64,000 bases of DNA from contig CP076546.1 of assembly GCA_018889975.1 (NCBI GenBank), positions 3,348,001-3,412,000 on the forward strand. Reading direction: 5' to 3'. The notes under the pieces are model-generated. The model saw nothing but the letters and a program-made list of their open reading frames with translations. It was not told the origin of the DNA and searched no databases. The DNA is from Bacillus sp. NP157 (GTDB taxonomy: Bacteria; Pseudomonadota; Gammaproteobacteria; Xanthomonadales; Rhodanobacteraceae). Both the position numbers and the translations under genes were made by a program. This document shows positions 15,544-46,133 of the stretch, one piece after another (the stretch's first letter is position 1; each line of letters starts with the position of its first letter).

Positions 15544-15767
15544 GGGATCCTGTGGGACGTAGCGGGTAATGAGGGAGGCGCGCCCGTCGCGGGCTGCGCG
15601 GCAAGCCCCGATGTTAACACCGCGCCGGGCCCGGCCTTGGCGGGCTGTGTGTCGCTTTGCGACAAGCTGTGATACCCGACGCTTACGCATCACCGCGGTG
15701 CATACCTGCATTGCACGACCGTGCGGCTGCGTACGCTGCCTCTTCCCTGGTCCATCGAGAGGCATGC

Positions 15768-17456
15768 ATGCGTTTTCCTGCTACGTTGACGCTGGCCGTC
15801 ACTGGTTTTATTACTGCTTCCCCCGTGCATTCGGCCGAGCTCGCCGACGCGCACGCAGCACTGGCGGCATCGACGGCGGACGGCCGTGGCGAGACCTCCG
15901 TGACCCTCCCTTTACGCGGCGGTGCAGCATCCACCTTCCGCATGGTCGATTCCGGCGTACTCCCCCGCGCCCTGGTGCGGCGCCATCCCTCGATGCGCAG
16001 TTATCGTGGCGAGGATGCGCAGGGTCGGACGGCGCGGCTGGACTACGCAGGCAACGTCGGCCGGCTCAGCGTGTCCGGCGATGACGACGACACGCGGCCG
16101 TGGGAGCACGTCGAGACACTGCCGTCGCTACCCATGGATTTGCTCCCCACGAACCCGCGGGCGTCGCAAGCGGCAGCCGGGCTGCATGGACCCGCGCCGG
16201 ATGGACGTGGCGGCGGCTCTCCCACGTCGATCGCCCAAACGCCTTTCGGAGGCGACCTGGGCAAGGCGGGCGCCAGCCATGGCAACGTGCGCTACGACTT
16301 CCGCCTGGCCCTCGCGGCCGACAGCCGTTTCGTCGCCGCCAACGGCGGTACGGTGGCCTCAGCGCTGGGCGCCGCGGCACACATGGTCAATCGTGCCAAC
16401 GAGCGGATGGAAAACGACCTGGGCGTCCATCTCGTGCTCGCGGCGCAGAGCGACCGACTCATGATGGCCAGCGCCGCAAGCGATCCGCTGCGCCACGGCG
16501 AGCCACGTACGGCCGCCGCCATGCTTATCCAGCGTCGCCTTGCCGCCAGCTCGTACGACATCGGCCATGCCTTGCTCGGCTTGAATGGCGGCGAAACCGC
16601 GACCGGCACGTCATGCAGCGATGCGCGCGACGCGGACTACCTCGCCACCCACAAGGCCGCTGCGTGGAGCGGCGGCGAGGATGACGACGCCGCGCTCGAA
16701 GCCTTCATCCTCGTGCTCGGCAACCAGCTCGGCGCACCGTTTCGCAAGCCGCGTTGTCCATCGTGCCATGCGTTCGATGGCGCGAGCATCGAGCGCGTGC
16801 GCGTGTCACTCGGCTCGCGTGGTGGCCGCTGTGCGCGCAAGCACGTCAGCGACGCGACGGCGGCATGGATCGACCCGGAATCGTTGGCGGAGCCGATCGT
16901 CATCCCGGCCCACACGCCGTTCTGGCTGGATGCGACGATCGAGCCGACCATGCCTGGCCGCCGGCTGAGCTTCGCGTGGGATGAGCTCGGGGAATCGCCA
17001 CGGTCCGAGCGCGTTGCTCCGTCGAGGCGATCGCGCCGCGAGTTCGTCGACGACCTGCCCGACGCAGCTGGCAGCAGGTATTTTCGCCTTACCGTGCGTG
17101 ACCAAGGCGGCCTGACCGCTACTGTGGCGAGCGAAGACACGCGTGTGCAGGTGGTGGACACCGGCGGCGCTTTCGCCCTGCACCCCACGGCGGATGCACG
17201 GCGCGGCGAGGCGCTGGATGTCCGCTGGGATGTCGCAGGCACGACCACCAGGCCGATCTCCTGCCATTTCCTCGACCTGGGCTTGTCGATCGATGATGGC
17301 GCAAGCTGGACGACGCTCGCCCGCGACGTACCGAACAGCGGCAGCGCGGCGATCAACCTGCCGCCGGACGCTGCCACCGACAAGGCACGCCTGCGCATCG
17401 CCTGTGACTGGCGGCCGTTCTTCGCGGTATCGCCGAAGCCCTTCCGGATCCTTTGA
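15768..17456 (+). CDS. Secreted reprolysin-like metallopeptidase homologue, catalytic motif lost
   Basis: A 562-residue secreted protein (signal MRFPATLTLAVTGFITASPVHS). Residues 170-350 follow the fold order of secreted bacterial reprolysin-like (M12-type) metallopeptidases: YDFRLALAADSRFVAANGGT, VNRANERMENDLGVHLVL, SSYDIGHALLG and GTSCSDARDADYLATH. Where active members carry HExxHxxGxxH this protein has LVLGNQLGAPF at 315-325: the glycine and following G-A remain, but all three zinc histidines and the catalytic glutamate are gone. The C-terminal part has Ig/fibronectin-like beta domains (FRLTVRDQGGLTATV and LDLGLSIDDGASWTTLARDV), as in the active relatives. It is probably a pseudoprotease used for binding. 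The start follows a CGAGAGG site. It diverges from maeB and converges with the QEGLA gene, 12 bases apart. Confidence 0.65.
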   Translation: MRFPATLTLAVTGFITASPVHSAELADAHAALAASTADGRGETSVTLPLRGGAASTFRMVDSGVLPRALVRRHPSMRSYRGEDAQGRTARLDYAGNVGRLSVSGDDDDTRPWEHVETLPSLPMDLLPTNPRASQAAAGLHGPAPDGRGGGSPTSIAQTPFGGDLGKAGASHGNVRYDFRLALAADSRFVAANGGTVASALGAAAHMVNRANERMENDLGVHLVLAAQSDRLMMASAASDPLRHGEPRTAAAMLIQRRLAASSYDIGHALLGLNGGETATGTSCSDARDADYLATHKAAAWSGGEDDDAALEAFILVLGNQLGAPFRKPRCPSCHAFDGASIERVRVSLGSRGGRCARKHVSDATAAWIDPESLAEPIVIPAHTPFWLDATIEPTMPGRRLSFAWDELGESPRSERVAPSRRSRREFVDDLPDAAGSRYFRLTVRDQGGLTATVASEDTRVQVVDTGGAFALHPTADARRGEALDVRWDVAGTTTRPISCHFLDLGLSIDDGASWTTLARDVPNSGSAAINLPPDAATDKARLRIACDWRPFFAVSPKPFRIL

Positions 17457-22216: not shown

Positions 22217-23362
22217 ATGATGTCACTGCGTACCTGCGCGATGCTCGCGTGCCTCGCTCCGCTACCCGTCACAGCGGCCATCGCGCCGTCCATCCAAACG
22301 GATGTCTATCGCGAACTGTTGAAGTATCGCGTCGACGGCCCGCACGACGACCGGGTTACCTTTTCCGACGCCGCCCTCGGCACGCCGGCATTGCTACGCA
22401 TGCTCCTGGTCGATGCCCGTTCGCCCTACAGCGAGCTGGTGGCGATGCCCGACATGCTCAACGAGCTCTGGTGGGAAGATTTCAGTTCTCGCATAGCCCC
22501 CGGCCAGCCACCGGGTTCCGTGCTCGAGGCCCTTCAGTGGCAGCTTGGGCTTACCAAGGCTCGGCCGGGACGCGAGGTCGATGTCTCCCGCGTGGATGCC
22601 GCCGCCTTTCGGGGCGTTGAAGCAGCCGCCGGTGCGATCAAGGCAGGCATCCCCTACGACGTCTTCATGAAAGCGTGGGATATGAATCCGTCGGGCGTGA
22701 CGCTCGCGGCCCATGATGCCGTCGCCCTTCAGTTGCTCCGCGAACAGATGGCCCGCACCCCGCGATCCATGTGGCCCGCGCTGGGAATCGAGTCGTCGGT
22801 ACTGGACCGCTACATGGCGGCTCGTAGTGGCGACGACATATCGCATGACGATGCCGAGTATCTCGTCGGCATCGTCACGATGGCCCTGCGCAGCAGGGAC
22901 CCTGGCACCGGCACGGACGGAAAGCCCCGGCTCCCGGCCGCCTACCGGATCGCGCGCACGGCAGCGGCATACAAGGATATCAGGGGATATTTTCGCGGCA
23001 GCCCGCTCTGCGTAAACCACGACCCCAATGACGACCTTCCAAGGGACGCCAGTGCCTACGACGACAACAGCCCGCTGTGTTTCGTCGGAGCGACCGATCG
23101 CGCGGTGCTCGCCTGGTACCGCTCGGAATGGCGGCTGGAGCGACAGAGGATACCAATCCATGAAAATGCCCATCCAACATGGCACCGCGCCATGCTGATC
23201 TTCGGCCTCGCCATGCCGCTCATGGACATCGCCGCACTCGTTGAATTCTCGGAGGCATCGGTCGCCGGCGACATGGCCGAGACGTCCGGGCTCGAAGACG
23301 CCGAAGCCGAGGCAGCCGACGCGCGGGCCAGCTCGCTCAGCTGCGGAGTGCGAAGCGCATGA
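22217..23362 (+). CDS. Module protein A1: secreted, Cys-pair and C-terminal hydrophobic segment
   Basis: A 381-residue protein of unknown family with a signal peptide (MMSLRTCAMLACLAPLPVTA). It is a clear paralogue of the A2 gene (24412-25482): shared features are PYSELV then NELWW (92-96), LQLLREQMARTP, YRIARTAAAYKDIRGYF, two cysteines exactly 22 residues apart (C265, C288) with CFVGATDRAVLAWY, and a hydrophobic segment GLAMPLMDIAALVEF near 330. The body looks helical. The last segment is long enough to anchor or insert in a membrane. The start ATG follows AAGGAG. Its stop overlaps the start of the deaminase-like B1 gene (ATGA), so A and B are translated together, as expected of partners. 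Confidence 0.7.
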   Translation: MMSLRTCAMLACLAPLPVTAAIAPSIQTDVYRELLKYRVDGPHDDRVTFSDAALGTPALLRMLLVDARSPYSELVAMPDMLNELWWEDFSSRIAPGQPPGSVLEALQWQLGLTKARPGREVDVSRVDAAAFRGVEAAAGAIKAGIPYDVFMKAWDMNPSGVTLAAHDAVALQLLREQMARTPRSMWPALGIESSVLDRYMAARSGDDISHDDAEYLVGIVTMALRSRDPGTGTDGKPRLPAAYRIARTAAAYKDIRGYFRGSPLCVNHDPNDDLPRDASAYDDNSPLCFVGATDRAVLAWYRSEWRLERQRIPIHENAHPTWHRAMLIFGLAMPLMDIAALVEFSEASVAGDMAETSGLEDAEAEAADARASSLSCGVRSA

Positions 23363-24378
23363 ACGCATTGAACCTGGCCACGACCACCGCGCTCGCCCTC
23401 GCCTGCCTGTCCCCGTCGACCCGTGCTGCTCCCGGCGACGACCAGGTTGTGCCCTACGAAATCAAGCTCATGAAAGGCGCTGGCAACGTCGCTGTCTTCC
23501 TCGCCCACGATGCGGAGGTCCATGTAGAAGCACTGAGGAAGGGCGTTGCCGTGACGCAGGCGACGACGTCGTACGCGAACACCCCCGTACCCGTCAGGGG
23601 TAACCATAACTTCCGGAAGCAGCTGGCTGCCAAGGCCAGGGGTGCAACCCTCGCGCGGCTCGACTACCGCTCGGCCGCGACCGGCGAAACGATCAGGGTC
23701 CATGCACGCAGTGGCGCGTCGATTGAGCGAACGATCCAGCAAGTGGCAGGAAGGAGAAGCCAGGGTGCGACCAGTGGCTCCGAATCCGAGGCCGGCGCCC
23801 AGATCAGTCCCGCCGAGGCGCTCGCCGACGCCAGGGATGTGCAGTTTTATCCGCCGTCGGACATTCGAGCGACCAACATGCGACAGCGTGACAACTGGGT
23901 CGTCGAGCCTTCGGCTGAAACCGAGGGTCCTCGAAAGGGTGAGATCATCCATGGCACCGATGCGGAACTCAAGGCACTCCGGCAGCTTGAGTTTGAGTTT
24001 GAGAAAAACCCCGGGCTCAGCGTGGCGGGAGGCGAGGTCACGGGCTATGTCAGCAAGACGGTCTGCCATTCCTGTGACGCCGCCTTCAAGGCATTCGCCA
24101 GGAAATACAAGGTCAGCGGGACAATCTACTATCTCGATGAGACGAGCGTGAAGGACTCCGCTACGTTGGCCGACACCGTTGGCGACGACATCACCGCGGC
24201 GAGCCGGGCGTCGTCCGCTGTGCTCAGCCGGATACGTAAAGACCTTGGCTGGCAGCGTCTGGTCGAAAGCGAGGTGGATCCCGACGCGGCTTCGTGGTCC
24301 GGCCCCTACGACGTGGAGCGCCTTGCCGCCGCGGAAGCGGGCGAGCTCACGGCCAGCGAGCGCTGCCTTTCCGATTGA
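23359..24378 (+). CDS. Module protein B1: secreted, deaminase-fold-like domain
   Basis: A 339-residue protein with a signal peptide (MNALNLATTTALALACLSPSTRA). The N-terminal 150 residues are variable between paralogues apart from an ARLDYR-like strand. Residues 195-260 carry the pattern HGTDAELKALRQLE (H198, D201, E203) followed by GEVTGYVSKTVCHSCDAAFKAFARKYKV (C236, C239). A (H/C/D)xE motif on one helix and a CxxC at the start of the next, separated by a strand, is the zinc and catalytic arrangement of the cytidine deaminase fold, and the KAL and CxSC contexts resemble polymorphic-toxin deaminases. Activity and target are unknown. It overlaps A1 by 4 bases and is followed by A2 after 33 bases. 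Confidence 0.6.
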   Translation: MNALNLATTTALALACLSPSTRAAPGDDQVVPYEIKLMKGAGNVAVFLAHDAEVHVEALRKGVAVTQATTSYANTPVPVRGNHNFRKQLAAKARGATLARLDYRSAATGETIRVHARSGASIERTIQQVAGRRSQGATSGSESEAGAQISPAEALADARDVQFYPPSDIRATNMRQRDNWVVEPSAETEGPRKGEIIHGTDAELKALRQLEFEFEKNPGLSVAGGEVTGYVSKTVCHSCDAAFKAFARKYKVSGTIYYLDETSVKDSATLADTVGDDITAASRASSAVLSRIRKDLGWQRLVESEVDPDAASWSGPYDVERLAAAEAGELTASERCLSD

Positions 24379-24411
24379 CGGCTTCGTACGATCACCCGAC
24401 AGGAACCCCCG

Positions 24412-25482
24412 ATGCGAAAGCCATCACCCCGAGCGATGCTATTGCTTTGCCTCACTGCCTCGCCCGGGGCAATGGCTTCGTCGATCCTTGGGCAAATGCA
24501 GGCTGAGCGGATCGCTCAGCTCGGCATCGAGCAAGCCACGGACCATGACGACGCGTGGTTCGCGCAACAGCTTCTCGTGCAACCCGCCTCTCCCTACAGC
24601 GATGTGGTGCGTACACCGTCGCTCATGAACGAACTCTGGTGGCGCGAAGTCGTCGACGCCAGCGCAGCCGACGACGACCAGGTGCTCGATGCACTTCGCC
24701 GCGAACTGGGCATGACACGCGCGAGGCCAGGCGTCGATGTCATGCCGGCGGGCGGATTTCGCGATCCGTTCGTCGCAGCCAATGCAACGAAGGCGGGGCT
24801 GGAGCCGGATGTTTTCTGGCATGTGCTGGACCTGTTCGGCTACGAGCACGCGCCTCGCTTCGCAAGCCACGCTGTCGGACTACAGATCCTGCGCGAACAG
24901 ATCGGTTCGACGCCGCCAGCTCGCCGCGCCGCCGTAGGGGTGTTCGACGACGTCGCGTCCCGGGTCATGCGGGCGAGGCACCCGGACGAGTTGTCGACGC
25001 ATGATCTGCGCTACCTCGACACGATCGTCCAGCACCGGCTGCTGCATCCGTCGGCCAACGCCGGTCTGCCGATCGCCTGGCGGATCGCACGCGCGGCTGC
25101 CGCCTTTCGCGATGCGCAGGGCTATGTCACGTCACCGCCATGTCGACCGGATGGCACGGCGCATCCCCAGAACGCCGGGGGCGGAGCACCCGGCGATGCA
25201 CGCATACCCTGCTTCGTCGCAGCGCATGACCGTGCCGTGCACCGTTGGTACGTCGATGACATGCGTCGCACGCCGCTTCGGCCCGAGCCGCGGCACGATG
25301 GGCTCGCACGGTTGGGCCTGCTGGTCGGCGCGCTCATGCCCCTGCTCGACATGCTGGCCATGGCGGAAATCGTCGAGGCGGCCGTTGCCGACGACATGGT
25401 GTCTGCCGATGCGCTGTCCAGCTCCGACGCCGAGGCCTTGTCCGAACGCGCCAGCCGCCTGGCCTGCCCCGCAATGGAATAA
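24412..25482 (+). CDS. Module protein A2: paralogue of A1
   Basis: A 356-residue secreted protein (signal MRKPSPRAMLLLCLTASPGAMA) that repeats the A1 layout: PYSDVV, NELWW (73-77), LGMTRARPG, LQILREQIGSTP, WRIARAAAAFRDAQGYV, cysteines C244 and C267 with the same 22-residue spacing and CFVAAHDRAVHRWY, then the hydrophobic stretch GLLVGALMPLLDMLAMAEI. No family is recognised. An AGGA ribosome site precedes the ATG. The B2 gene starts 2 bases after its stop. Divergence from A1 is large (perhaps a third identical by eye), so the duplication is old or under diversifying selection. Confidence 0.7.
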   Translation: MRKPSPRAMLLLCLTASPGAMASSILGQMQAERIAQLGIEQATDHDDAWFAQQLLVQPASPYSDVVRTPSLMNELWWREVVDASAADDDQVLDALRRELGMTRARPGVDVMPAGGFRDPFVAANATKAGLEPDVFWHVLDLFGYEHAPRFASHAVGLQILREQIGSTPPARRAAVGVFDDVASRVMRARHPDELSTHDLRYLDTIVQHRLLHPSANAGLPIAWRIARAAAAFRDAQGYVTSPPCRPDGTAHPQNAGGGAPGDARIPCFVAAHDRAVHRWYVDDMRRTPLRPEPRHDGLARLGLLVGALMPLLDMLAMAEIVEAAVADDMVSADALSSSDAEALSERASRLACPAME

Positions 25483-25484
25483 CC

Positions 25485-26579
25485 ATGATCATGAGCGTAC
25501 GTTCAATCCCACCCGTCGTAGCCATCGCCGTCGCGTACGCCTTGCCTGGCTACGCCGCCGCCGGCAGCGTCACCACAACCCGTGCGGATCTCGACGAAGG
25601 CAACCTCGTCGCGCTGCTCGAAGCCAGCAGCCAGCGCCATGTCGATGCCATGCGCAGTATCATCGTCGCGAGGTATCCCGGGGACTATCGGGCGCGGCGT
25701 TGGGAGCTCGTCGAGAGCCATATGCGCAGCACGCCCATCGCACGGCTGGAGTACACCTACACGTCGAATGGGATCTCCCACGTGCGCACGTACCACGCGA
25801 TGGCCGGCGAGCCCCTGGGCCGTGTCGCCGTGCGCGCGTTCGCCGGACCGACGCCACCAGGAACGCCGAGCACGCCATCGTCGCCGGAGCTGGCAACGTC
25901 GGCGTCCGAGGCGGAAGAAGACGCCGCCGGTAGCCAGGCGGCGGTAAGCGACGAGGCACTCGCCGCGGCGGAAACCGCAGACGAACCCTTCTACGTCGCG
26001 TCGGACGCGACCGACGTCCGTGCGCCTTTTCGCATGGGCGGTCGCTCGATCATGAAGCCCTACTGGCACGATGGCCGTTATCATGCCCTGGATGCCGAAC
26101 AGAAGGCGTTGCGCGCGTTGGAGGACGACATCCTCGGCGGCGTCGTGCCACGCAGCGGCACGGTACGCGGGATGCTCAGCGGCGTTGTCTGCCACACCTG
26201 CCGCTGGTCCATCGGGACCTTCGCCGACGCCTACGACCTCGACATCCAGCTTACCGAAATGTCTCCCACCATCCCGTCGGCGCTCAAGAAGGAGCTGATC
26301 GCCTCTGGCCGGGCACGCCTCAGGGGACTCAAGCTCATCGACGCGGGCACGGAACGGCCGATGGTGGCCTTCGATGCATTGGCCGGTGCACGCGCCGCAC
26401 AAGTCCGTGACAATATCAGCCCCGCCGCCATGGAACGTACGGCAAGCGGCAAGCCATGGCCACAGCGTTCGTTTCGACTGGGTCAACCGCGGCCACGGCG
26501 GATCACCGAAGCATCGGCAAGCCCGTCGGAAGGCTCCGACCGTACGTCGTCACCCGAGCGCGAACCGCCGGATTGCTGA
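25485..26579 (+). CDS. Module protein B2: paralogue of B1 with deaminase-fold-like domain
   Basis: A 364-residue secreted protein (signal MIMSVRSIPPVVAIAVAYALPGYA). Its core, HALDAEQKALRALEDDI (H200, D203, E205) then SGTVRGMLSGVVCHTCRWSIGTFADAYDL (C236, C239), matches B1 at the same residue positions, while the regions on either side have diverged. A proline/serine/alanine-rich linker occupies about 121-165. The C-terminal 70 residues are basic and disordered-looking and unrelated to B1's tail. ATGs at 25485 and 25491 are both possible; the first keeps the longer signal. It ends 12 bases from the convergent hrpB gene, which closes the array. Confidence 0.6.
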   Translation: MIMSVRSIPPVVAIAVAYALPGYAAAGSVTTTRADLDEGNLVALLEASSQRHVDAMRSIIVARYPGDYRARRWELVESHMRSTPIARLEYTYTSNGISHVRTYHAMAGEPLGRVAVRAFAGPTPPGTPSTPSSPELATSASEAEEDAAGSQAAVSDEALAAAETADEPFYVASDATDVRAPFRMGGRSIMKPYWHDGRYHALDAEQKALRALEDDILGGVVPRSGTVRGMLSGVVCHTCRWSIGTFADAYDLDIQLTEMSPTIPSALKKELIASGRARLRGLKLIDAGTERPMVAFDALAGARAAQVRDNISPAAMERTASGKPWPQRSFRLGQPRPRRITEASASPSEGSDRTSSPEREPPDC

Positions 26580-29153: not shown

Positions 29154-31352
29154 TCACTCGACGGCCGGCTTCGGCGTGAACGGCTCCAGCGAGCGGAAAC
29201 GTCGACGGTAGTCGTCAGCGACGCGACGTGCGTCGCCCGCGCTGCCGATCACCCTCGGCGTGATCAGCACGAGGGTTTCGGTGCGCTGGTTGTTATCCCA
29301 GCGATTGCCGAACAGCTTGCCGAAGACGGGGATGCGCGACAGGCCAGGCACGCCACTGCGGCCGTGCGCGCCGATCTCACGAATCAGGCCGCCGAGCAGC
29401 ACCGTCTGACCACTCTGCACGGCCACTTCGGTTTTCAGCTTGCGCTTCTCGATCGGTGCGTTACCCGACGCATTGGCCGCTTCGCCCACCTTGCTCACTT
29501 CCTGCTCCACGTCCAGGTAGACCAGGCCACCGGGGTTCACCCGAGGACGCACCTTCAGCATGACGCCCGTTTTCTTGTAGGCGACCTGGCCTACCTCGCT
29601 GCTCGCACCGACCTGCGTGTTCACGTAGGTCTGCGTGACCGGCACTTCATCGCCGACGACGATCTCCGCGCGACGGTTGTTCACCACGACCAGCGAAGGC
29701 GCCGACAACGTGCGTGCATGGGTGTCTTCCTCCAGCGCACGCACGATCGCCTGCAGGTCCTTGTTGACGAAGGAGTAGAAGAACGTGTCGGCACCGCCAC
29801 GGGTGATCGGCAGCCGGCCCAGGCCCCATCCCTGGCGGTTGCCGGGCTGCGCCGGCTTGCCGCTTCCGCCGCTGCCTGCGAGTCCCTCGAGGTACCACTG
29901 CACGCCGAACCGGAAGTTATCCTGCAAGGCGACCTCGAGGATTCGCGTTTCGATCTGCACCTGCAGTGGCACGGCATCGAGCCGTTCGATGGCCGCGCGG
30001 ATCGCCACCCACTGCGACGGACGCGCGTGGACCAGCACCTGGTTGTTCGCATCCACCGCGGTGACCCGCAGGGCATGCTCGCCGCCGCTGCTGACGCTGC
30101 CGCTGCCGGCTGGCGACGTGGCCGGCTGGTAGAACGCGGGATCGCGCTCGCCGTCGAACACCTCGGTCTCGTCGCCAGCGGACGGGCCGGCTCCCGACTC
30201 GTACGTTGCGCTGGCCAGGCCCGGGACGACCTCACCCGCGTGATCGGCGCCGCCCACGAAACCGCCGTATATCTGGCCGATGTGCCGGGCGACGTCCGCC
30301 GCGGGAAGATTGCGTACGTCGTACACGTACAGGCGCGGCTCGTTGCCGCCGCCACGATCGATCCGGTCGATCCATTCGCCAACGCGATCCACGATCTCGC
30401 CGCGCGTTGCAATTGCGACGATCGCGTTGCTTCGCTCGATCGGCAGGAAGCGAACCATCCCCGCGCCCGGTGACCGCGCTTTTTCGCCGAACACCGACTC
30501 GAGGCCTTGCAACAATTCCTTCGTGCTCGCGTGTTTGAGCGGGAAGACGCCGACCGACATGCCACCGACCCAGTCGACATCGAAGGTGTCGATGCTTGCC
30601 GCGTAGTTGTCCAGTTCCTCCGGCGTGCCAGCCAACACCAGCAGGTTGCGGACAGGGTCGACCAGTAGCAGGCCATCGGGAGTGACGAACGGCGTGAGCA
30701 GCTTCTCCATCTCGTTGGCGGCGACGAAGCGCAGCGGGAACAATCGCGCCGCGTGGCCCGAGCGGGGTGCCGATGCGGCGAGCCGCGGCACCAGCGCGCC
30801 GGCGACCGCCTGCCGTCGCGGCACGACGTCGTAGCGACCGTGTCGATGGACCAGCGCGTTACCCGTCCACGACAGCAATGTCTCGAGGATCGGCAATGCC
30901 TCGTCGCGGGATACGGGGCGCGCCGTCGAGAACGACACCGTGCCGCCGACGCCGGGCATGATCGCGTAATTCACATCCAGCACGTCGGCAAGGATGGCGC
31001 GCACCACGGCTTCCACCGGCTGGTCTTCGAAGTTGAACGTCAATGCACCCTCACCCGCCGCCCCAGGTCGTGGTGTTGCCAGCGCGCGCGGCGTGACGGC
31101 CGGGCGCGTCGTCGACGGTGGCCGCGACTTCAATGGATCGCCAGCGCCGTGCGTGATCGACGCTGCTACGCGATCCGCCGGGCCGGCGCTCGCATCCGCA
31201 GGCAGTGGCAGTGGCAGCGGTAGCGGCACGGGCCGGGCCAGGTCGGCCAGCGCTTCCCGCTCGAGATTACCCGCGAGGCGGGACGACTGCGTGGCGCAGC
31301 CCGTGGCAAGGCTGGCCATCAGGATGGCCATGCCTGTCTTGTATCGTTGCAT
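29154..31352 (-). CDS. gspD: Type II secretion outer-membrane secretin GspD (XpsD-like lipoprotein)
   Basis: A 732-residue secretin that forms the outer-membrane pore of the T2SS. It has a lipoprotein signal (MAILMASLATGC), as in Xanthomonas XpsD, which explains how it may reach the outer membrane without a pilotin. After a proline-rich linker (PVPLPLPLPLP) come the N0 domain (FNFEDQPVEAVVRAILADVL), N1-N3 domains and the secretin core ending PVFGKLFGNRWDNNQRTETLVLITPRVI. It is the last gene of the T2SS operon. The ATG at 31352 is preceded by AGAGGA. The 59 bases before it contain no gene. Confidence 0.93.
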   Translation of the reverse strand: MQRYKTGMAILMASLATGCATQSSRLAGNLEREALADLARPVPLPLPLPLPADASAGPADRVAASITHGAGDPLKSRPPSTTRPAVTPRALATPRPGAAGEGALTFNFEDQPVEAVVRAILADVLDVNYAIMPGVGGTVSFSTARPVSRDEALPILETLLSWTGNALVHRHGRYDVVPRRQAVAGALVPRLAASAPRSGHAARLFPLRFVAANEMEKLLTPFVTPDGLLLVDPVRNLLVLAGTPEELDNYAASIDTFDVDWVGGMSVGVFPLKHASTKELLQGLESVFGEKARSPGAGMVRFLPIERSNAIVAIATRGEIVDRVGEWIDRIDRGGGNEPRLYVYDVRNLPAADVARHIGQIYGGFVGGADHAGEVVPGLASATYESGAGPSAGDETEVFDGERDPAFYQPATSPAGSGSVSSGGEHALRVTAVDANNQVLVHARPSQWVAIRAAIERLDAVPLQVQIETRILEVALQDNFRFGVQWYLEGLAGSGGSGKPAQPGNRQGWGLGRLPITRGGADTFFYSFVNKDLQAIVRALEEDTHARTLSAPSLVVVNNRRAEIVVGDEVPVTQTYVNTQVGASSEVGQVAYKKTGVMLKVRPRVNPGGLVYLDVEQEVSKVGEAANASGNAPIEKRKLKTEVAVQSGQTVLLGGLIREIGAHGRSGVPGLSRIPVFGKLFGNRWDNNQRTETLVLITPRVIGSAGDARRVADDYRRRFRSLEPFTPKPAVE

Positions 31353-39977: not shown

Positions 39978-42900
39978 TTACCAGCCGATACCTACGCCAA
40001 CACCGCCGGAAGTCTCACCTCCGCTGACGGCGGCACCGAAGGTCAGGGCAGCCCGCGGGGAAATCGACCGCGAGTAACCGACCGACAGTGCGCCCTGCCC
40101 CTTGTAGCCACCCGCACCGACGCCGAGCTTGTTGTCGCCGCTGACGGACTGGGCGCTGAACGCCATCTGCGACATCGCCGCACCCATGGCGCCGACCTTG
40201 TTCAGGCGGTCGTTGAGGTTTTCGAAGCGATGGTCGACCTGGCGCTTGTAGTCATCGAAGGCACCGCCGCTGACCACGTCGCCAAACTTCTGGTCCGTGT
40301 AAGCCTTGGCGCTGTTCAGGGTGGTTGCATCGCCCTGGTCGGCATAAGACTTCGCGGTGGTCAGGGCCTGGTCGACCTGGCTCACGTTCGCGGCATCGGT
40401 CGGCGAGGTGCCGGCCGCCACGTTGGTGATCCGGCGCTCGTTGCCGGCCGAGCCGATCGACACCGTGCCGGCCTGGTCGGCGACCGAGTTCGCACCCAGG
40501 GCGACACTGCCCTGCGCCGCGGCGGTCACCGTTGCACCGGTACCGACCGCTGTGCTGTCGGCGGCGTCGATGTGAGCGCCGGTGCCGATCGCCAGGTCGG
40601 TCGGGTCCTTCGCGTGGCTGCTGGCGCCGATCGCCGTGCCGTTGCCGGTGCCGCGCGGGACGCCCGTCGAGGTATCCACGGTGGTCTGCAACGAGTCGAC
40701 CCGGGTGTTCAGCGCCGAGATCGCCCCGTCGAGGGCGCCGACGGCGCCACCGACGTTGTTATAGGACGAGCCCTGCACGCTGTACGACGGCCCGACGAAG
40801 CCGTTGACGCCCATCGTCGCGCCGCCGCCGAGCGCCATCGCCAGGCTGTTGCCCATGGCATTACTGCCGGCCGAGAGCGAATTGGTCACCATGCTGTTCA
40901 ACTGGCTCAGGTTCACCGCGTCGTTGGCCTGGGTGCCGTCGGCCACGTTGGTGACCTGGCGCATGTTGCCCGCCGAGCCCACCGAGACCGTGTTGGCGCG
41001 GGTCGCGGTCGAGCCGCTGCCCAGTGCCACCGAGTTCACCGCGGTGGCACGCGCGCTGTCGCCGATGGCCGTGGCGCTGGCGGCGGCCGCATTCGCGGAT
41101 GCACCCAGGGCCGTGCCGGATTCCTTGCTCGCGGTCGAGAAGGCACCGATCGCCGTGGACAGGTCGCCGCTGGCGGTGGCGTTCGAACCGACGGCCGTGC
41201 CGTTTGCCTTGTTGGCGAGCGAATGGGCACCGACGGCGATCGTGTTGTCGCCATGCGTCTCGGCGTAGTCACCCACCGCCACGCTGCTGGCGCCGGCGGC
41301 CCACGTATTGATGCCGAGGGCTGTCGCATTCTCGGCAGGGGCATACGCGAAGTAGCCCACGGCCGTGCTGCCGACACCGGCCGCGGCGGTCATGCCGCCG
41401 AGCGCGGTGGCGAAGTCCTCGGTTGCCTGGGCACCGGCACCGAGTGCGGCGGCGCTGTCGCCGGTCGCACCGGTGTAGACCAGGCCGAAGTCACCGAGGT
41501 TGGCCGGGCCACCGACGGCCACGGCGCCGCTGCGCGTGGCCGCGGCACCCATGCCGATGGCCGTCGCGTTCTCGCCCGAGGCGCTTGCCACCGCGCCGAG
41601 GGCGGTGGCCTGGGCGCCGGATGCACTGGCACCCACGCCATACGCCGACGAGGCGAAGCCTTCGGCGCTGGCGCTGGCGCCAACGGCCGTGGCCGCCGTG
41701 CCGGCGCTGGTGGCACCGAGGTCGACCGGGTTGCCCTGCGCATCGCCGATCAGCGGCGTACCGTCTTCGTCCACGGCCACGCCACCGACGGCGACGCTGG
41801 CCGCGCCGTTCGCACTGGCGCTGGCACCGAAGGCCGAGCTGTTCTGGCCGCTGGCGAACGCACCATTACCGACGGCCGTGGCATTGACGCCATAGGCCGA
41901 TGCAACCGTACCCAGGGCCGTCGCCCCATCGGCCAGCGCGGCCGCGCCGGAACCCGCGGCGGTGGCGAAGTTGCCGGCCGCCGTGGCGTCGTCGCTGCCG
42001 TCACCTGCACCGTTGGCCTTGAAGTAATGGCCGGCATCGCTGGTGGAGGACGCGATGGCATCGAGCTGGGCCTTGTTCACCGCATCGGTGGCCTGCGTAC
42101 CGGCCGCGACGTTGGTGACCTGGCGCTCCGCGCCCGTGGCCCCGACGGAGACAGTGTTGGCGCGCGAAGCGACGGAGCCCGAGCCGAGTGCGACTGCATT
42201 GGCTGCACTGGAGGTTGCGCCGGCACCCAGGGCCGTCGAGTTGGCAGCGCTCGCCACCGAGCTCACGCCCAGGGCGGTCGCGTTGTTGCCGGCGGCCGCC
42301 GCGTTGTAGCCCACGGCGGTCGACAGGGTGCCACCCGCGAGGCTGTACGAACCCAATGCCGTCGAACCCGGGCCAACCGCGTCGGAGAGGAAACCGGCCG
42401 CCAGCGACTGCTCGCCTTCGGCGAAGGCCGCCGTGCCGAGTGCGGTCGACAGGTCGCCCGTGGCCTGCGCGCTGGCGCCCACCGCGGTGGCAGCGAGGCC
42501 GGACGCCGTGGTCACGCCAACGCTATCGCCGCTGGCGTTGGTCACCAGCGGGTTGCCGTCTTCGTCGACAGCCTCCCCGCCGATCGCCGTGGCGCTGTTT
42601 GCCGTGGCCTGCGAACCGCTGCCGTAGGCCGCGCTGTTCACGCCCGAAGCGAACGACGACGAACCCGTCGCCGTGGCGTTGGCGCCGGTGGCGAACGATC
42701 CCGAACCGAACGCGCTGGCGCCCTCGGCACCGGCGAATGCACCCGAGCCGGATGCCGTGGCGAAGTTACCCACCGCCGTCGCGTCGTCGCTGCCGTCGCC
42801 GGCACCGTTAGCCTTGAAGTAATGGCCGGCGTCGCTGGTGGCGGACGCGATGGCATCGAGCTGGCCCTTGTTCACCGCATCGGTAGCCTGCGTGCCCGCC

Positions 42901-45900
42901 GCCACGTTGGTGACCTGGCGTTCCGCGCCGGCACTGCCCACCGAGACGGTGTTGGTGCGCGTGCTGACCGAGTTGGCTCCGAGCGCGACCGAATTCGCCG
43001 CGTTGGCCGTGGCACCGACACCGAGCGCCACCGAGTTGCTGGCGTTCGCGGTGGCCGAGTAACCGGCGGCGAGCGACAGCGTGCCCGGCGCGTAGCTGTA
43101 GGAACCAAGTGCCGTGGAACCGGCACCCGATGCTTCGGAAAGGAAGCCAACTGCAAGGGCCTGCTCGCCTTCGGCGAACGCCGCCGTGCCCACCGCCGTG
43201 GACAGGTCGCCCGTGGCCTGCGCGCTGGAACCGAGCGCCGTGGCCGCCAGGCCGGAAGCCGTGGCCGGACCGACGCCGTCACCGCTGGCAAGGGTCACCA
43301 GCGGCGCGCCATCTTCGTCCACCGCCTGGCCACCGATCGCCGTGGCGCTGGCGCCGGATGCCTGCGAACCGCTGCCGTAGGCGGCGCTGTTGATGCCCGA
43401 AGCGAACGACGACGAACCTGTCGCCGTCGAATTCACGCCTGTGGCAAACGAACCCGAACCGAAGGCGCTGGCGCCATCGGCACCGGCGAACGCACCCGAA
43501 CCCGACGCCGTGGCGAAGTTACCCACCGCCGTCGCGTCGTCGCTGCCGTCGCTCGCGCCCGTGGCCTTGAAGTAATGCGCGGCATCGCTGGTGCTCGCCG
43601 ACACGGCGTCGAGCTGGTTCTTGTTCACCGCATCGGTACCTTCGGTTCCGGCGGCGACGTTGGTGACCTGGCGTTCGGACCCGACATCGCCGACGGAGAC
43701 GACGTTATCGCGTTCCGCGTTCGAGCCCTGGCCAAGCGCGACGGAGTTGCTGCCGAACACCGTGGTGTTCGCGCCGATCGCCGTGCTGTTGTCGCCGACG
43801 GCCCATGCGTTTGCACCGATCGCCACGGCATTGGGCACTTCCAGGCCGAACAAGGCGAAGCCCGTCTCGGCGTAATTACCGATCGCGATGCTGCCTTCGC
43901 CTGCGGCGCTCGCGCCGCCACCGAGTGCGACCGCGCCATTGCTGTAGGCCGTCGCACCGCCGCCCGCGGCGAGCGAGAGATCACCCGCGGCATACGACTG
44001 GGCACCGAGCGCCACCGCGTACTGGCCGTCGGCCTCGGAAAGGAAACCGCTCGACAGCGACTGCTCGCCCTGCGCGAACGCGGCCGTGCCGACCGCCGTG
44101 GCGAACTGCCCCGAGGCCTGTGCGCTCGAACCCAGCGCGGTGGCGGCGAGGCCCGAGGCCGTCGCCGGTCCGACCGCTTCGCCGGTTGCGTTGTAGGTGA
44201 TCAGCGGGTCGCCGTTCTCGTCCACGGCCTGTCCACCGATCGCCGTCGCGCTGTTGGCCGTGGCCTGTGCGCCACCGCCGTACGCGGCGCTGTTCTTGCC
44301 CTGGGCCGTCGAGCCGTAGCCACTGGCCGTGGCGCTATCGCCCTGGGCGAAGGCACCCGCGCCCAGCGACGATGCACCGACACCGTTGGCGCTGGCGCCG
44401 TTGCCGATCGCCGTCGCGTAGTCGCTGTCGGCGACGCTGCTGGCACCGAAGCTCGATGCGCCCGCGCCGTCCGCGATGCTGCTGTAGCCATTGGCCGTGG
44501 CGTCGTCACCGAATGCCGCGCTGGCTGCACCGGTCGCCGTCGACCGCGCGCCGGAAGCCTCGCTGTTGGCGCCCACGGCCGTGCTGTCCGCCGTGGCGGC
44601 ATTGGCCAGTGCGCCGACCGCCGTGGCGTTGCTGTCGCCGGCGTAGCTGTTGCCACCCACCGCCGTGGCGTTGTCGCCGTTGGTGGTGGAGACCGCACCT
44701 ACGGCCGTGGAAAATTCGCCTACGGCAATCGCCTCGGCACCGAGTGCGCTCGCACCGAGCGACTGCGCGGCCGCGGCTTCACCGAGTGCCGTCGCCGAAT
44801 CGGCCGCGGCATAGCTGTTCCAGCCCACCGCCGTCGCGTAATCGGCGACCGCCCAGGCGCCCGCACCCAGTGCCGTCGAGGCATAGCCGGTGGCCTGCGC
44901 CGTGAAGATGCCGAACGCACTGCCGCCAACGGCGACGCTTTCGTCACCCTCGGCCGTCGCGCTCTCGCCGACCGCGACGCTGCTCACGCCACTGGCCGTG
45001 CTCTGTGTACCCACGGCCGTGGAGTAATCGCCGAGCGCATTGGCGACCGCACCGAGCGCGGTCGACTGCGAGCCGCTGGCATAGGCGCCCACGCCGAACG
45101 ACGACGCGGCGAAACCGCCCGCCTGCGCGCTCGCGCCCACCGCGGTGCCACCGACATCGGCGCTCGTCGCACCGACCTCGACGGAGACGCCGCCGTTGGT
45201 GATCAGCGGATTGCCATCCGCATCCACCGCCACGCCGCCGACGGCGACGCTACCCGGACCGTTGGCCTGGGCCTGTGCGCCATAGGCGGCACTGTTCTGA
45301 CCGGTGGCGACCGCGCCGTAGCCCGTCGCGGTGGAGTTGCCGCCCGAGGCGAATGCGCCGCTACCGAAGGCGCTGTCGCCCGTGCTACCGGCAAACGCGC
45401 CGGAACCGGCGGCCGTGGCGTAGTTACCGATGGCCATGGCGTCGTCGCTGCCGTCTTTCAGGCCATTGGCCTTGAAGTAATGCTGTGCGTCGGCCGTCGC
45501 ATCGGACAGCGCATCGAGCTGGCGCTTGTTCACGGCGTCCGTCGCCTGCGTGCCATCGGCGACGTTGACGACCTGGCGCTCGGCACCGTTGCGACCCACC
45601 GAGACGGTGTCCGCGCGGTTGGCGATCGAATTCGCACCGAGCGCGACGCTGTTGTTGGCCACGGCGCGTGCGCCCGTGCCGATCGCCGAGCTGGACACGT
45701 TCGCTGCGTTGGCGCCCTGGCCGAACGCGACGCTATCGTCGCCCGCGGCACGCGAGCCCTGGCCGAACGCCGAAGAGAAGTCACCCGCGGAGCGCGCGTC
45801 CTGGCCGACCGCCGTGCTGTAAAGCCCGCGCGAGCGGGCGCCATCGCCGAGGGCGACGCTGAAATCACCCATCGCGCGTGCATCCGGCCCGCAGGCAAAC

Positions 45901-46133
45901 GCCTGGGTACCATTCGCCACCGGCGCGAGGCCGCTGGCCATGCTGCAAACCGAGCCTGCCTCGGCCGAAGGGCTGGCAAGCGCAAGCGCTGCGCCCGCCA
46001 CCAGCGGCAGGGCGGCCATCGCGGCACGGAGGCGTCGGGAGGCGCCACCCTTGCCGTTCGCGCTTGCATGCTCCGAGGCAACCACCAGGATGCCGAGCGA
46101 CTTGTTCCAGACCTTGCTGTAAATCGTGTTCAC
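39978..46133 (-). CDS. Trimeric autotransporter adhesin (YadA-like)
   Basis: A 2051-residue surface adhesin of the type V(c) secretion class. It starts at a GTG with an extended signal peptide (ESPR: MNTIYSKVWNKSLGILVVAS, then a hydrophobic h-region near residues 35-55). The passenger is built of YadA-head-like short repeats (SxAxGxxAxAxG, dozens of them) punctuated by six neck-like motifs of the form VSVGxxGAERQVTNVA followed by DAVNKxQLDA. The last 90 residues form the YadA anchor (YKRQVDHRFENLNDRLNKVGAMGAAMSQMAF, then beta strands ending in W). It should bind host or abiotic surfaces. A GGGGAG ribosome site precedes the start. Confidence 0.93.
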   Translation of the reverse strand: MNTIYSKVWNKSLGILVVASEHASANGKGGASRRLRAAMAALPLVAGAALALASPSAEAGSVCSMASGLAPVANGTQAFACGPDARAMGDFSVALGDGARSRGLYSTAVGQDARSAGDFSSAFGQGSRAAGDDSVAFGQGANAANVSSSAIGTGARAVANNSVALGANSIANRADTVSVGRNGAERQVVNVADGTQATDAVNKRQLDALSDATADAQHYFKANGLKDGSDDAMAIGNYATAAGSGAFAGSTGDSAFGSGAFASGGNSTATGYGAVATGQNSAAYGAQAQANGPGSVAVGGVAVDADGNPLITNGGVSVEVGATSADVGGTAVGASAQAGGFAASSFGVGAYASGSQSTALGAVANALGDYSTAVGTQSTASGVSSVAVGESATAEGDESVAVGGSAFGIFTAQATGYASTALGAGAWAVADYATAVGWNSYAAADSATALGEAAAAQSLGASALGAEAIAVGEFSTAVGAVSTTNGDNATAVGGNSYAGDSNATAVGALANAATADSTAVGANSEASGARSTATGAASAAFGDDATANGYSSIADGAGASSFGASSVADSDYATAIGNGASANGVGASSLGAGAFAQGDSATASGYGSTAQGKNSAAYGGGAQATANSATAIGGQAVDENGDPLITYNATGEAVGPATASGLAATALGSSAQASGQFATAVGTAAFAQGEQSLSSGFLSEADGQYAVALGAQSYAAGDLSLAAGGGATAYSNGAVALGGGASAAGEGSIAIGNYAETGFALFGLEVPNAVAIGANAWAVGDNSTAIGANTTVFGSNSVALGQGSNAERDNVVSVGDVGSERQVTNVAAGTEGTDAVNKNQLDAVSASTSDAAHYFKATGASDGSDDATAVGNFATASGSGAFAGADGASAFGSGSFATGVNSTATGSSSFASGINSAAYGSGSQASGASATAIGGQAVDEDGAPLVTLASGDGVGPATASGLAATALGSSAQATGDLSTAVGTAAFAEGEQALAVGFLSEASGAGSTALGSYSYAPGTLSLAAGYSATANASNSVALGVGATANAANSVALGANSVSTRTNTVSVGSAGAERQVTNVAAGTQATDAVNKGQLDAIASATSDAGHYFKANGAGDGSDDATAVGNFATASGSGAFAGAEGASAFGSGSFATGANATATGSSSFASGVNSAAYGSGSQATANSATAIGGEAVDEDGNPLVTNASGDSVGVTTASGLAATAVGASAQATGDLSTALGTAAFAEGEQSLAAGFLSDAVGPGSTALGSYSLAGGTLSTAVGYNAAAAGNNATALGVSSVASAANSTALGAGATSSAANAVALGSGSVASRANTVSVGATGAERQVTNVAAGTQATDAVNKAQLDAIASSTSDAGHYFKANGAGDGSDDATAAGNFATAAGSGAAALADGATALGTVASAYGVNATAVGNGAFASGQNSSAFGASASANGAASVAVGGVAVDEDGTPLIGDAQGNPVDLGATSAGTAATAVGASASAEGFASSAYGVGASASGAQATALGAVASASGENATAIGMGAAATRSGAVAVGGPANLGDFGLVYTGATGDSAAALGAGAQATEDFATALGGMTAAAGVGSTAVGYFAYAPAENATALGINTWAAGASSVAVGDYAETHGDNTIAVGAHSLANKANGTAVGSNATASGDLSTAIGAFSTASKESGTALGASANAAAASATAIGDSARATAVNSVALGSGSTATRANTVSVGSAGNMRQVTNVADGTQANDAVNLSQLNSMVTNSLSAGSNAMGNSLAMALGGGATMGVNGFVGPSYSVQGSSYNNVGGAVGALDGAISALNTRVDSLQTTVDTSTGVPRGTGNGTAIGASSHAKDPTDLAIGTGAHIDAADSTAVGTGATVTAAAQGSVALGANSVADQAGTVSIGSAGNERRITNVAAGTSPTDAANVSQVDQALTTAKSYADQGDATTLNSAKAYTDQKFGDVVSGGAFDDYKRQVDHRFENLNDRLNKVGAMGAAMSQMAFSAQSVSGDNKLGVGAGGYKGQGALSVGYSRSISPRAALTFGAAVSGGETSGGVGVGIGW
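42080..43640 (-). repeat. Two near-identical long repeat units inside the adhesin gene
   Basis: Units of about 770-790 bases, 42080-42870 and 42870-43640, run from one neck motif to the next. Each encodes a neck, then DAGHYFKANGAGDGSDDATA, then a head stretch containing FATASGSGAFAGA and SAYGSGSQA. They are alike enough that recombination could change their number. Boundaries are approximate and by eye. Confidence 0.7.

What the first reader, a model, noticed from the sequence alone, without database searches (positions are those of the whole stretch)
22217..26579. Tandemly duplicated A-B gene module with a secreted deaminase-fold-like protein
Two A-B pairs lie in line (A1-B1-A2-B2, gaps of -4, 33 and 2 bases). 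B1 and B2 share the core HxxDAExKAL at residues 198-207 and 200-209, and CHSC/CHTC at identical positions 236-239. The (H/C/D)xE...CxxC layout and the KAL and CxSC contexts are those of deaminase-fold domains known from polymorphic toxins. Outside this core the B proteins have diverged strongly, with unrelated C-terminal tails. A Sec signal on all four proteins is unusual for a nucleic acid or nucleotide deaminase. I know of no description of such a module, which makes it the best candidate for a new system in this window.
Basis: partly seen in the sequence, partly recalled or inferred. Interest (0 to 1): 0.85.

Follow-up and report, generated by a model that had tools for sequence, protein, structure and literature searches.

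The report
Paired exported deaminase toxin-like gene arrays
Luteibacter bacteria carry fast-evolving arrays of gene pairs that appear to export a base-editing enzyme together with a dedicated partner protein, possibly bonded to each other as a two-chain weapon, although no function has been tested.

Summary
A1-B1-A2-B2 lie at the stated places with gaps of -4, 33 and 2 bases. All four have Sec-like N-termini, and B1 and B2 carry DAExK...CxxC.

B is a deaminase-fold protein of the BURPS668_1122 (PF14424) kind. Of 63 B relatives, 47 match that model (E<1, best 9.6e-9), and the AlphaFold model of B1 has the core strand and helix order.

The module occurs in 23 of 23 genomes of one genus (Luteibacter), mostly beside hrpB and the type II secretion operon. 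A is an orphan family with no credible match elsewhere in the genomes searched. The pairs are ancient paralogues under purifying selection; A and B distances correlate at r=0.80.

New here: 55 of 60 A and 59 of 63 B have a Cys in their last 15 residues; the classical PF14424 tails examined have none. Where A lacks it, B's spare-Cys count usually turns even (4 of 6, against 1 of 55).

Best reading: an exported A-B heterodimer, probably disulfide-linked, carrying a deaminase toxin. Disulfide, target, export route and A's role are inferred.

The parts
22217..23362 (+). A1: 381 aa, Sec-like N-terminus, orphan partner protein (all helix in a low-confidence model)
   Evidence: no Pfam or NCBIfam family for A1
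23359..24378 (+). B1: 339 aa, Sec-like N-terminus, PF14424-like deaminase-fold protein
24412..25482 (+). A2: 356 aa, paralogue of A1 (36% identity)
25485..26579 (+). B2: 364 aa, paralogue of B1 (22% identity)
23359..23362 (+). ATGA overlap of A1 stop and B1 start (probable translational coupling); the same 4-base overlap in 38 of 60 pairs
23950..23979 (+). B1 HGTDAELKAL: putative zinc ligand D201 and proton shuttle E203
24064..24075 (+). B1 CHSC (C236, C239): putative zinc ligands
24364..24366 (+). B1 C-terminal C336, candidate for an intermolecular disulfide
26082..26111 (+). B2 HALDAEQKAL
26190..26201 (+). B2 CHTC (C236, C239)
26574..26576 (+). B2 last residue C364, candidate for an intermolecular disulfide
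23009..23080 (+). A1 invariant C265 and C288 (candidate internal disulfide)
23342..23344 (+). A1 C-terminal C376, candidate disulfide partner of B1 C336
25141..25212 (+). A2 C244 and C267, at the two invariant Cys positions
25465..25467 (+). A2 C-terminal C352
29154..39781 (-). Type II secretion operon (matches to GspE, F, H, K, M, N_methyl pseudopilins and the secretin GspD); neighbour and candidate export route, not shown to export A or B

Best explanation
Each A-B pair encodes two Sec-exported proteins, probably made from one coupled message. B is a deaminase of the BURPS668_1122 toxin clade with its catalytic motif kept, without the large trafficking region that usually carries such domains. 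A is its obligate partner. After export, A closes an internal disulfide between its two central Cys, and its C-terminal Cys bonds to the C-terminal Cys of B, giving a covalent A-B heterodimer. The heterodimer leaves the cell, most plausibly through the neighbouring type II secretion system. A brings B to or into a target cell, where the reducing cytosol frees B to deaminate bases of nucleic acid or nucleotides. Several diverged pairs per strain give a repertoire. Shown: the pairing, order, co-divergence, conserved active-site motif, prevailing Cys layout, purifying selection and conserved site. Inferred: catalysis, the disulfide, type II export, the target (fungi, bacteria or other soil and plant neighbours), and the carrier role of A.
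For: B as deaminase: PF14424 matches in 47 of 63, 2 of 10 picked members over cut-off; the B profile finds 4 of 5 classical toxin frames (E 7.6e-7 to 1.4e-8 in a small set); core order in the model; E and CxxC in 64 of 64, D in 63 of 64. Pairing: A and B alternate in window plus 20 loci, bar three extra B; 4-base overlap in 38 of 60; distance correlation 0.80 over 59 pairs against at most 0.45 when B is shuffled within species, 0 of 2000. Cys within the last 15 residues: A 55 of 60, B 59 of 63, against 5.7 and 7.2 expected from composition; in loci fetched later, same genus, 6 of 6 A and 7 of 7 B; none in 5 classical tails or the broken L065 frame. Parity: of 6 A without the C-terminal Cys, 4 have a B with 0 or 2 spare Cys, against 1 of 55 others (Fisher p=1.4e-4 with one fused case added by hand; p=0.0012 on the 59 scripted pairs). 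No gene fits between those of the window module. Type II operon nearby. Constraint: dN/dS 0.14-0.33 in 12 comparisons, synonymous sites near saturation in six.
Against: Two A proteins without the C-terminal Cys (L023, L038) are paired with a B that keeps a single spare Cys. In 8 of 60 pairs A has four mature Cys, and in 7 of these the total is odd; one more pair (L031:13490) has three and two. Three extra B genes without their own A keep the Cys. The parity test ignores relatedness, and mature parts were cut by fixed lengths. The A model is too poor (pLDDT 50) to show a binding or translocation domain. No secretion, toxicity or deamination data exist. A co-exported all-helical partner could equally be an inhibitor. 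B1 and B2 themselves match no Pfam deaminase, and PF14424 finds nothing in the own genome (its control genomes rang in none either).
Confidence: 0.42

Rival explanations
1. A is an exported immunity protein or inhibitor: B is a toxin, and A holds it inactive in the periplasm of the producer or captures B coming from siblings, perhaps covalently.
For: One A per B with strong co-divergence. The predicted all-helical make-up (low confidence) resembles the all-alpha Imm2 and Imm3 listed for BURPS668_1122 toxins (PMC3482391, passages) and the helical SsdAI (PMC7901873, passages).
Against: A carries a Sec-like signal in 59 of 61 copies by a rule that favours signals, whereas a nucleic-acid deaminase acts in the cytosol. 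A precedes B and is more conserved than B (33% against 24% mean column identity), the reverse of usual immunity genes (recalled). The resemblance to Imm2 or Imm3 is of helix content only; no Imm family is among the 15 families matched by A.
Confidence: 0.25
2. A and B are an exported enzyme and its chaperone or cofactor, used to deaminate extracellular bases or nucleosides for nutrition, or to act on a secreted host molecule, not a weapon.
For: Present in 23 of 23 genus genomes, at one site in the 21 loci examined, under purifying selection, which fits a housekeeping exoenzyme.
Against: Divergence far above its neighbours (median identity to the window 30-45% against 83% for HrpB and 62% for GspD), array expansion to 5 pairs, and relationship to toxin deaminases.
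Confidence: 0.15
3. The C-terminal Cys of A and B do not bond to each other but serve separate ends (homodimers, or attachment to another envelope protein), and A and B are merely co-expressed.
For: Three B genes without an A of their own keep the Cys. Two pairs whose A lacks the Cys keep a lone B Cys.
Against: Parity association (p=1.4e-4; p=0.0012 without the hand-added case), and the L026 case, where the only B of 64 without any spare Cys follows an A without its C-terminal Cys.
Confidence: 0.3
4. B is a degenerate deaminase-fold protein without catalysis (a binding module).
For: Weak matches of most members to deaminase models, none for B1 and B2.
Against: D, E and CxxC kept in at least 63 of 64 while the rest diverges to 24% mean column identity.
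Confidence: 0.07

Closest known systems
BURPS668_1122 toxin deaminases (Pfam PF14424, Toxin-deaminase)
   Same: DxExK...CxSC core and preceding two-strand region; the B profile finds 4 of 5 classical frames examined, E 7.6e-7 to 1.4e-8 in a small set; PF14424 matches 47 of 63 B at E<1
   Different: B is a stand-alone Sec-exported protein of 258-369 aa; the five classical frames lie at the ends of long frames (643 aa or more as held, 3 of 5) or in frames of 162-198 aa (2 of 5), with 21-37 residues after CxxC and no Cys there, and the family is listed with Imm2, Imm3 or SUKH immunity (PMC3482391 passages)
DddA, SsdA and BaDTF3 interbacterial DNA deaminase toxins (PMC7901873)
   Same: deaminase fold used, in the paper, to mutate target DNA; SsdA has a helical immunity partner
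   Different: other deaminase clades; DddA is delivered by T6SS with immunity DddAI; no Sec export, array or covalent partner in the passages seen
MafB/MafI polymorphic toxins of Neisseria
   Same: toxin and immunity genes in genomic islands (abstract start); MafB19 is a deaminase family (Pfam name); signal peptides and tandem islands recalled
   Different: recalled: MafB has its own N-terminal domain and a following immunity gene; here the partner precedes B and is itself exported
Disulfide-linked two-chain (AB) protein toxins
   Same: catalytic chain and partner chain apparently joined by a disulfide that would open in the cytosol (inferred)
   Different: no AB toxin with a deaminase catalytic chain is known to me (recalled); A has no convincing match to any Pfam family or solved chain

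Membership tests
PF14424 BURPS668_1122 deaminases | [HCD]xE and CxxC zinc-deaminase motifs | tested here: met
   D in 63 of 64, E 64 of 64, CxxC 64 of 64
PF14424 BURPS668_1122 deaminases | profile score over the curated cut-off | tested here: inconclusive
   over cut-off in 2 of 10 picked members; 47 of 63 at E<1; B1 and B2 no match; none in own genome (control silent)
PF14424 BURPS668_1122 deaminases | deaminase-core order of strands and helices | tested here: met
   E98-104, E111-117, H202-216, E226-231, H237-250, E253-258 in the B1 model; no fold search could be run
PF14424 BURPS668_1122 deaminases | toxin tip on a large trafficking protein (usual for polymorphic toxins) | tested here: not met
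   stand-alone 258-369 aa with Sec-like signal, apart from one B-A fusion of 650 aa
PF14424 BURPS668_1122 deaminases | deaminase activity | not testable with these tools
   no assay
Polymorphic toxin-immunity pair | cytoplasmic immunity gene next to the toxin gene | tested here: not met
   only A is coupled to B, and A has a Sec-like signal in 59 of 61; window gaps are -4, 33 and 2 bases; gaps in other loci were measured only from A to B
Disulfide-linked AB toxin | interchain disulfide | tested here: inconclusive
   Cys layout and parity support it; not measured; exceptions exist
Disulfide-linked AB toxin | cell-binding or translocation chain | tested here: inconclusive
   A has a hydrophobic stretch, at the median 56 residues from its end (19-residue mean over 1.6 in 35 of 60, 0 of 63 B); model too poor

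The most novel reading that the evidence does not exclude
A genus-wide repertoire of covalent two-chain toxins whose catalytic chain is a base deaminase: exported by Sec and type II secretion, held together by a C-terminal disulfide, freed by reduction in the target cell, with A as a new family of delivery chain.
Probability: 0.3. Interest if true: 0.87.

Novelty: new variant of a known kind. Interest (0 to 1): 0.72.

Why it matters
Toxin deaminases are known as tips of contact-dependent or injected polymorphic toxins, and some have become genome-editing tools (papers, listing). A Sec-exported, partner-bound, array-forming branch would mean a new delivery logic for base-editing toxins, a set of dozens of diverged enzymes to test for sequence preference, and a new orphan protein family (A). 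Luteibacter includes endohyphal strains; the genomes with the lengths of strains 9143 and 9135 carry the module, so a fungal target is directly testable.

Tried and rejected
Recent tandem duplication: rejected, since pairs have closer relatives in other species. The His of HxxDAE as a conserved ligand: rejected, 30 of 64. A as a relative of a known family: no Pfam match for A1 or A2; in NCBIfam none for A1 and one chance-level match for A2 (0.092); over 59 members only scattered weak Pfam matches, DUF6197 in 2 at best 1.2e-4; no solved relative (best E 0.37). Spread of A outside the genus: none in 378 other order genomes (few candidates per genome were scored). One weak class hit, G627 at 2.1e-4, looks like an MlaC-type protein (my reading of the letters) with no B beside it. 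B outside the genus: a giant toxin frame in G081, and a weak G868 hit at 4.1e-4 whose locus gave no match to the A or B profiles. Plasmids: no match to A1. The gene next to arrays in 12 loci (cluster c19) reads as a DEAD-box helicase, probably DbpA (letters, recalled naming), so not a third component. Strict parity of all Cys: not met in several pairs. Two weak PF14424 hits (L067, L068) read as LysR-type regulators (letters, recalled naming), so they are false. Promoter scan: nothing above shuffles.

Not obtained: Foldseek search of the models and a trustworthy A model. The start codons and signal calls come from a rule that picks the best-scoring start, so they are biased towards finding signals. 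Its wrong start for B1 was replaced by the frame start. The A part of the fused L026 frame was lost by key overlap, so hold 60 A of 61; its pair was added by hand. Two genus genomes, G008 and G020, were not in the 20 loci; their pairs come.
Full report
The observation. They sit between a pseudouridine synthase gene (PseudoU_synth_2 and S4 domains; rluF-like, my naming) and hrpB. Beyond hrpB lies a type II secretion operon, with the secretin frame 29154-31352 and matches to GspM, K, pseudopilins, H, F and E up to 39781, on the minus strand.

Who has it. L049, the only relative found by name, is Luteibacter anthropi CCUG 25036. The window's genome is in the same genus as these, so the window is from Luteibacter. 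A and B relatives are in 23 of 23 genomes of the genus. The B profile finds 24 of 233 family genomes, the 23 plus G081, where the match lies in a 3531-residue frame. The A profile finds 20 of 398 order genomes, all of the own genus, out of 98 genera. In the class, 2 of 369 match, one of them the own genome and the other a weak look-alike.

Array anatomy. In the window and 20 fetched loci (one per genome, 21 of 23 genomes), iterative profiles found 61 A and 64 B. They alternate A-B, in 1 to 5 pairs per locus, on one or both strands. HrpB (cluster c7) is in 21 of 21 loci and GspD (c12) in 19; the pairs lie between the rluF-like gene and hrpB or between hrpB and gspD. Three genomes (G008, G013, G017) have further pairs elsewhere. 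Three loci have an extra B after a pair, one has B fused in frame to the next A, and one dispersed pair is in B-A order (L055). A ends in the ATGA start of B in 38 of 60 pairs.

Age and selection. Pairs of one genome are old paralogues: median identity within genomes is 29% for A and 23% for B, and the closest relative lies in the same genome in 2 of 59 (A) and 0 of 59 (B). The best matches to the window proteins in the 20 loci have median identities of 37.5 (A1), 30 (B1), 44.5 (A2) and 40% (B2), against 83% for HrpB (20 loci) and 62% for GspD (18 loci). Twelve comparisons of related pairs give dN/dS 0.14-0.33, six of them with synonymous sites near saturation: fast but constrained evolution. 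A and B distances correlate at 0.80 over 59 pairs. Shuffling B among the pairs of each genome never exceeds 0.45 in 2000 trials, so each A has evolved with its own B.

What B is. Window B1 and B2 match no deaminase model on their own. Their relatives do: 47 of 63 match PF14424 at E<1, the best at 9.6e-9; ten that I picked, scanned singly, all match it at E<0.01, two over the curated cut-off. Conversely the B profile finds four of five classical toxin frames from other genomes, at 7.6e-7 to 1.4e-8 in a small set of frames. The invariant residues are those of zinc deaminases: D 63 of 64, E 64 of 64, CxxC 64 of 64, and K two after E in 62 of 64. The AlphaFold2 model of B1, from five sequences, has mean pLDDT 60 and pTM 0.64. 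Ten-residue blocks of the core reach about 72-87. Its elements run strand 98-104, strand 111-117, helix 202-216 (just after D201), strand 226-231, helix 237-250 (just after C236), strand 253-258. That is the deaminase order (recalled). A Foldseek confirmation could not be run. So B is a deaminase-fold protein with its motif intact; activity and substrate are not known.

What A is. A1 and A2 belong to no Pfam family, and over 59 members only weak scattered matches appear. Invariant residues include two Arg, two Cys about 22 apart, an Asp and a Trp. The model is poor (pLDDT 50) and nearly all helix. A hydrophobic stretch, at the median 56 residues from the end, exceeds 1.6 on a 19-residue scale in 35 of 60 A and in 0 of 63 B. 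It contains acidic residues in many copies and is as compatible with a buried or membrane-inserting helix as with nothing special.

The cysteine pattern. Of 60 scripted pairs, 48 A have exactly three mature Cys (8 have four, 4 have two) and 55 have one near the C-end. 55 B have exactly one Cys beyond the zinc pair, and 59 have one near the C-end, often as the last residue (mature parts cut by fixed length). Within the last 15 residues, A has a Cys in 55 of 60 (5.7 expected) and B in 59 of 63 (7.2 expected). Five loci fetched after the pattern was seen, from the same genus, keep it in 6 of 6 A and 7 of 7 B, one of the B being a fragment. Five distinct classical tails have none, nor has the broken frame L065. 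Six A of 61 lack the C-terminal Cys. In four of these the partner B has two spare Cys (L031, L036, L040) or none at all (L026, the only B of 64 with none); among the 55 others one B has an even number (Fisher p=1.4e-4, with the fused L026 case added by hand; p=0.0012 on the 59 scripted pairs). Against it: two pairs (L023, L038) break the rule, seven pairs have an A with a fourth Cys that leaves the sum odd, one has three and two, three B without their own A keep the Cys, and the test takes no account of relatedness. I read the pattern as an A-B disulfide made after export; it is not measured.

How it may work. Nearly all A and B have N-termini like Sec signals by a simple rule (59 of 61 A, 64 of 64 B; the rule picks favourable starts). 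Exported unfolded, a deaminase would not harm the producer, which may be why no cytoplasmic immunity gene lies between the genes of the window module. Type II secretion is the likeliest way out, because both proteins would fold in the periplasm and the operon is a regular neighbour, but proximity is weak evidence. In a target cytosol a disulfide would open and free B. Strain 9143 has type I, II, IV and VI but no type III secretion (PMC9040847 passages), and the word deaminase does not occur in the main text of that co-culture study. Fungal hyphae are an obvious candidate target, but bacteria are not excluded.

Alternatives. A may instead be an exported inhibitor, since BURPS668_1122 toxins are listed with all-alpha Imm2 and Imm3 (PMC3482391 passages). 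The Cys might serve other partners, or B may be a nutritional exoenzyme. These are weighed in the rivals.

Print search. Searches covered an open-access library. No listed title or abstract start describes such a module; 'Luteibacter' with 'deaminase domain' gave 0 papers. Most subscription papers are not held, nor was the 2011 deaminase-fold paper, so priority is not established.

Verdict. The finding is real, and the deaminase reading is supported. The larger discovery is the genus-wide, co-diverging, exported pair with a C-terminal Cys on both chains.

Noticed in passing
window 15657-17456 +: Reprolysin-like metallopeptidase (PF13583 over cut-off), perhaps secreted; related frames in 11 of 21 loci near the arrays (cluster c18).
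   Followed up: no
window 39978-46133 -: 2051-residue trimeric autotransporter adhesin with ESPR signal, YadA head, stalk and anchor, next to the type II operon.
   Followed up: no
L026:11131-13080 -: B and the next A are one open frame of 650 residues: a natural B-A fusion. The A part lacks the C-terminal Cys, as does the following B.
   Followed up: partly
L053:5688-6074 +: In the genome with the length of endohyphal strain 9143, a B remnant of 129 residues ending in ...APGC lies near two intact pairs: array decay.
   Followed up: no
L058:2-6577 +: Another genus of the family has a giant toxin-like frame ending in a classical PF14424-like deaminase tip without C-terminal Cys.
   Followed up: partly
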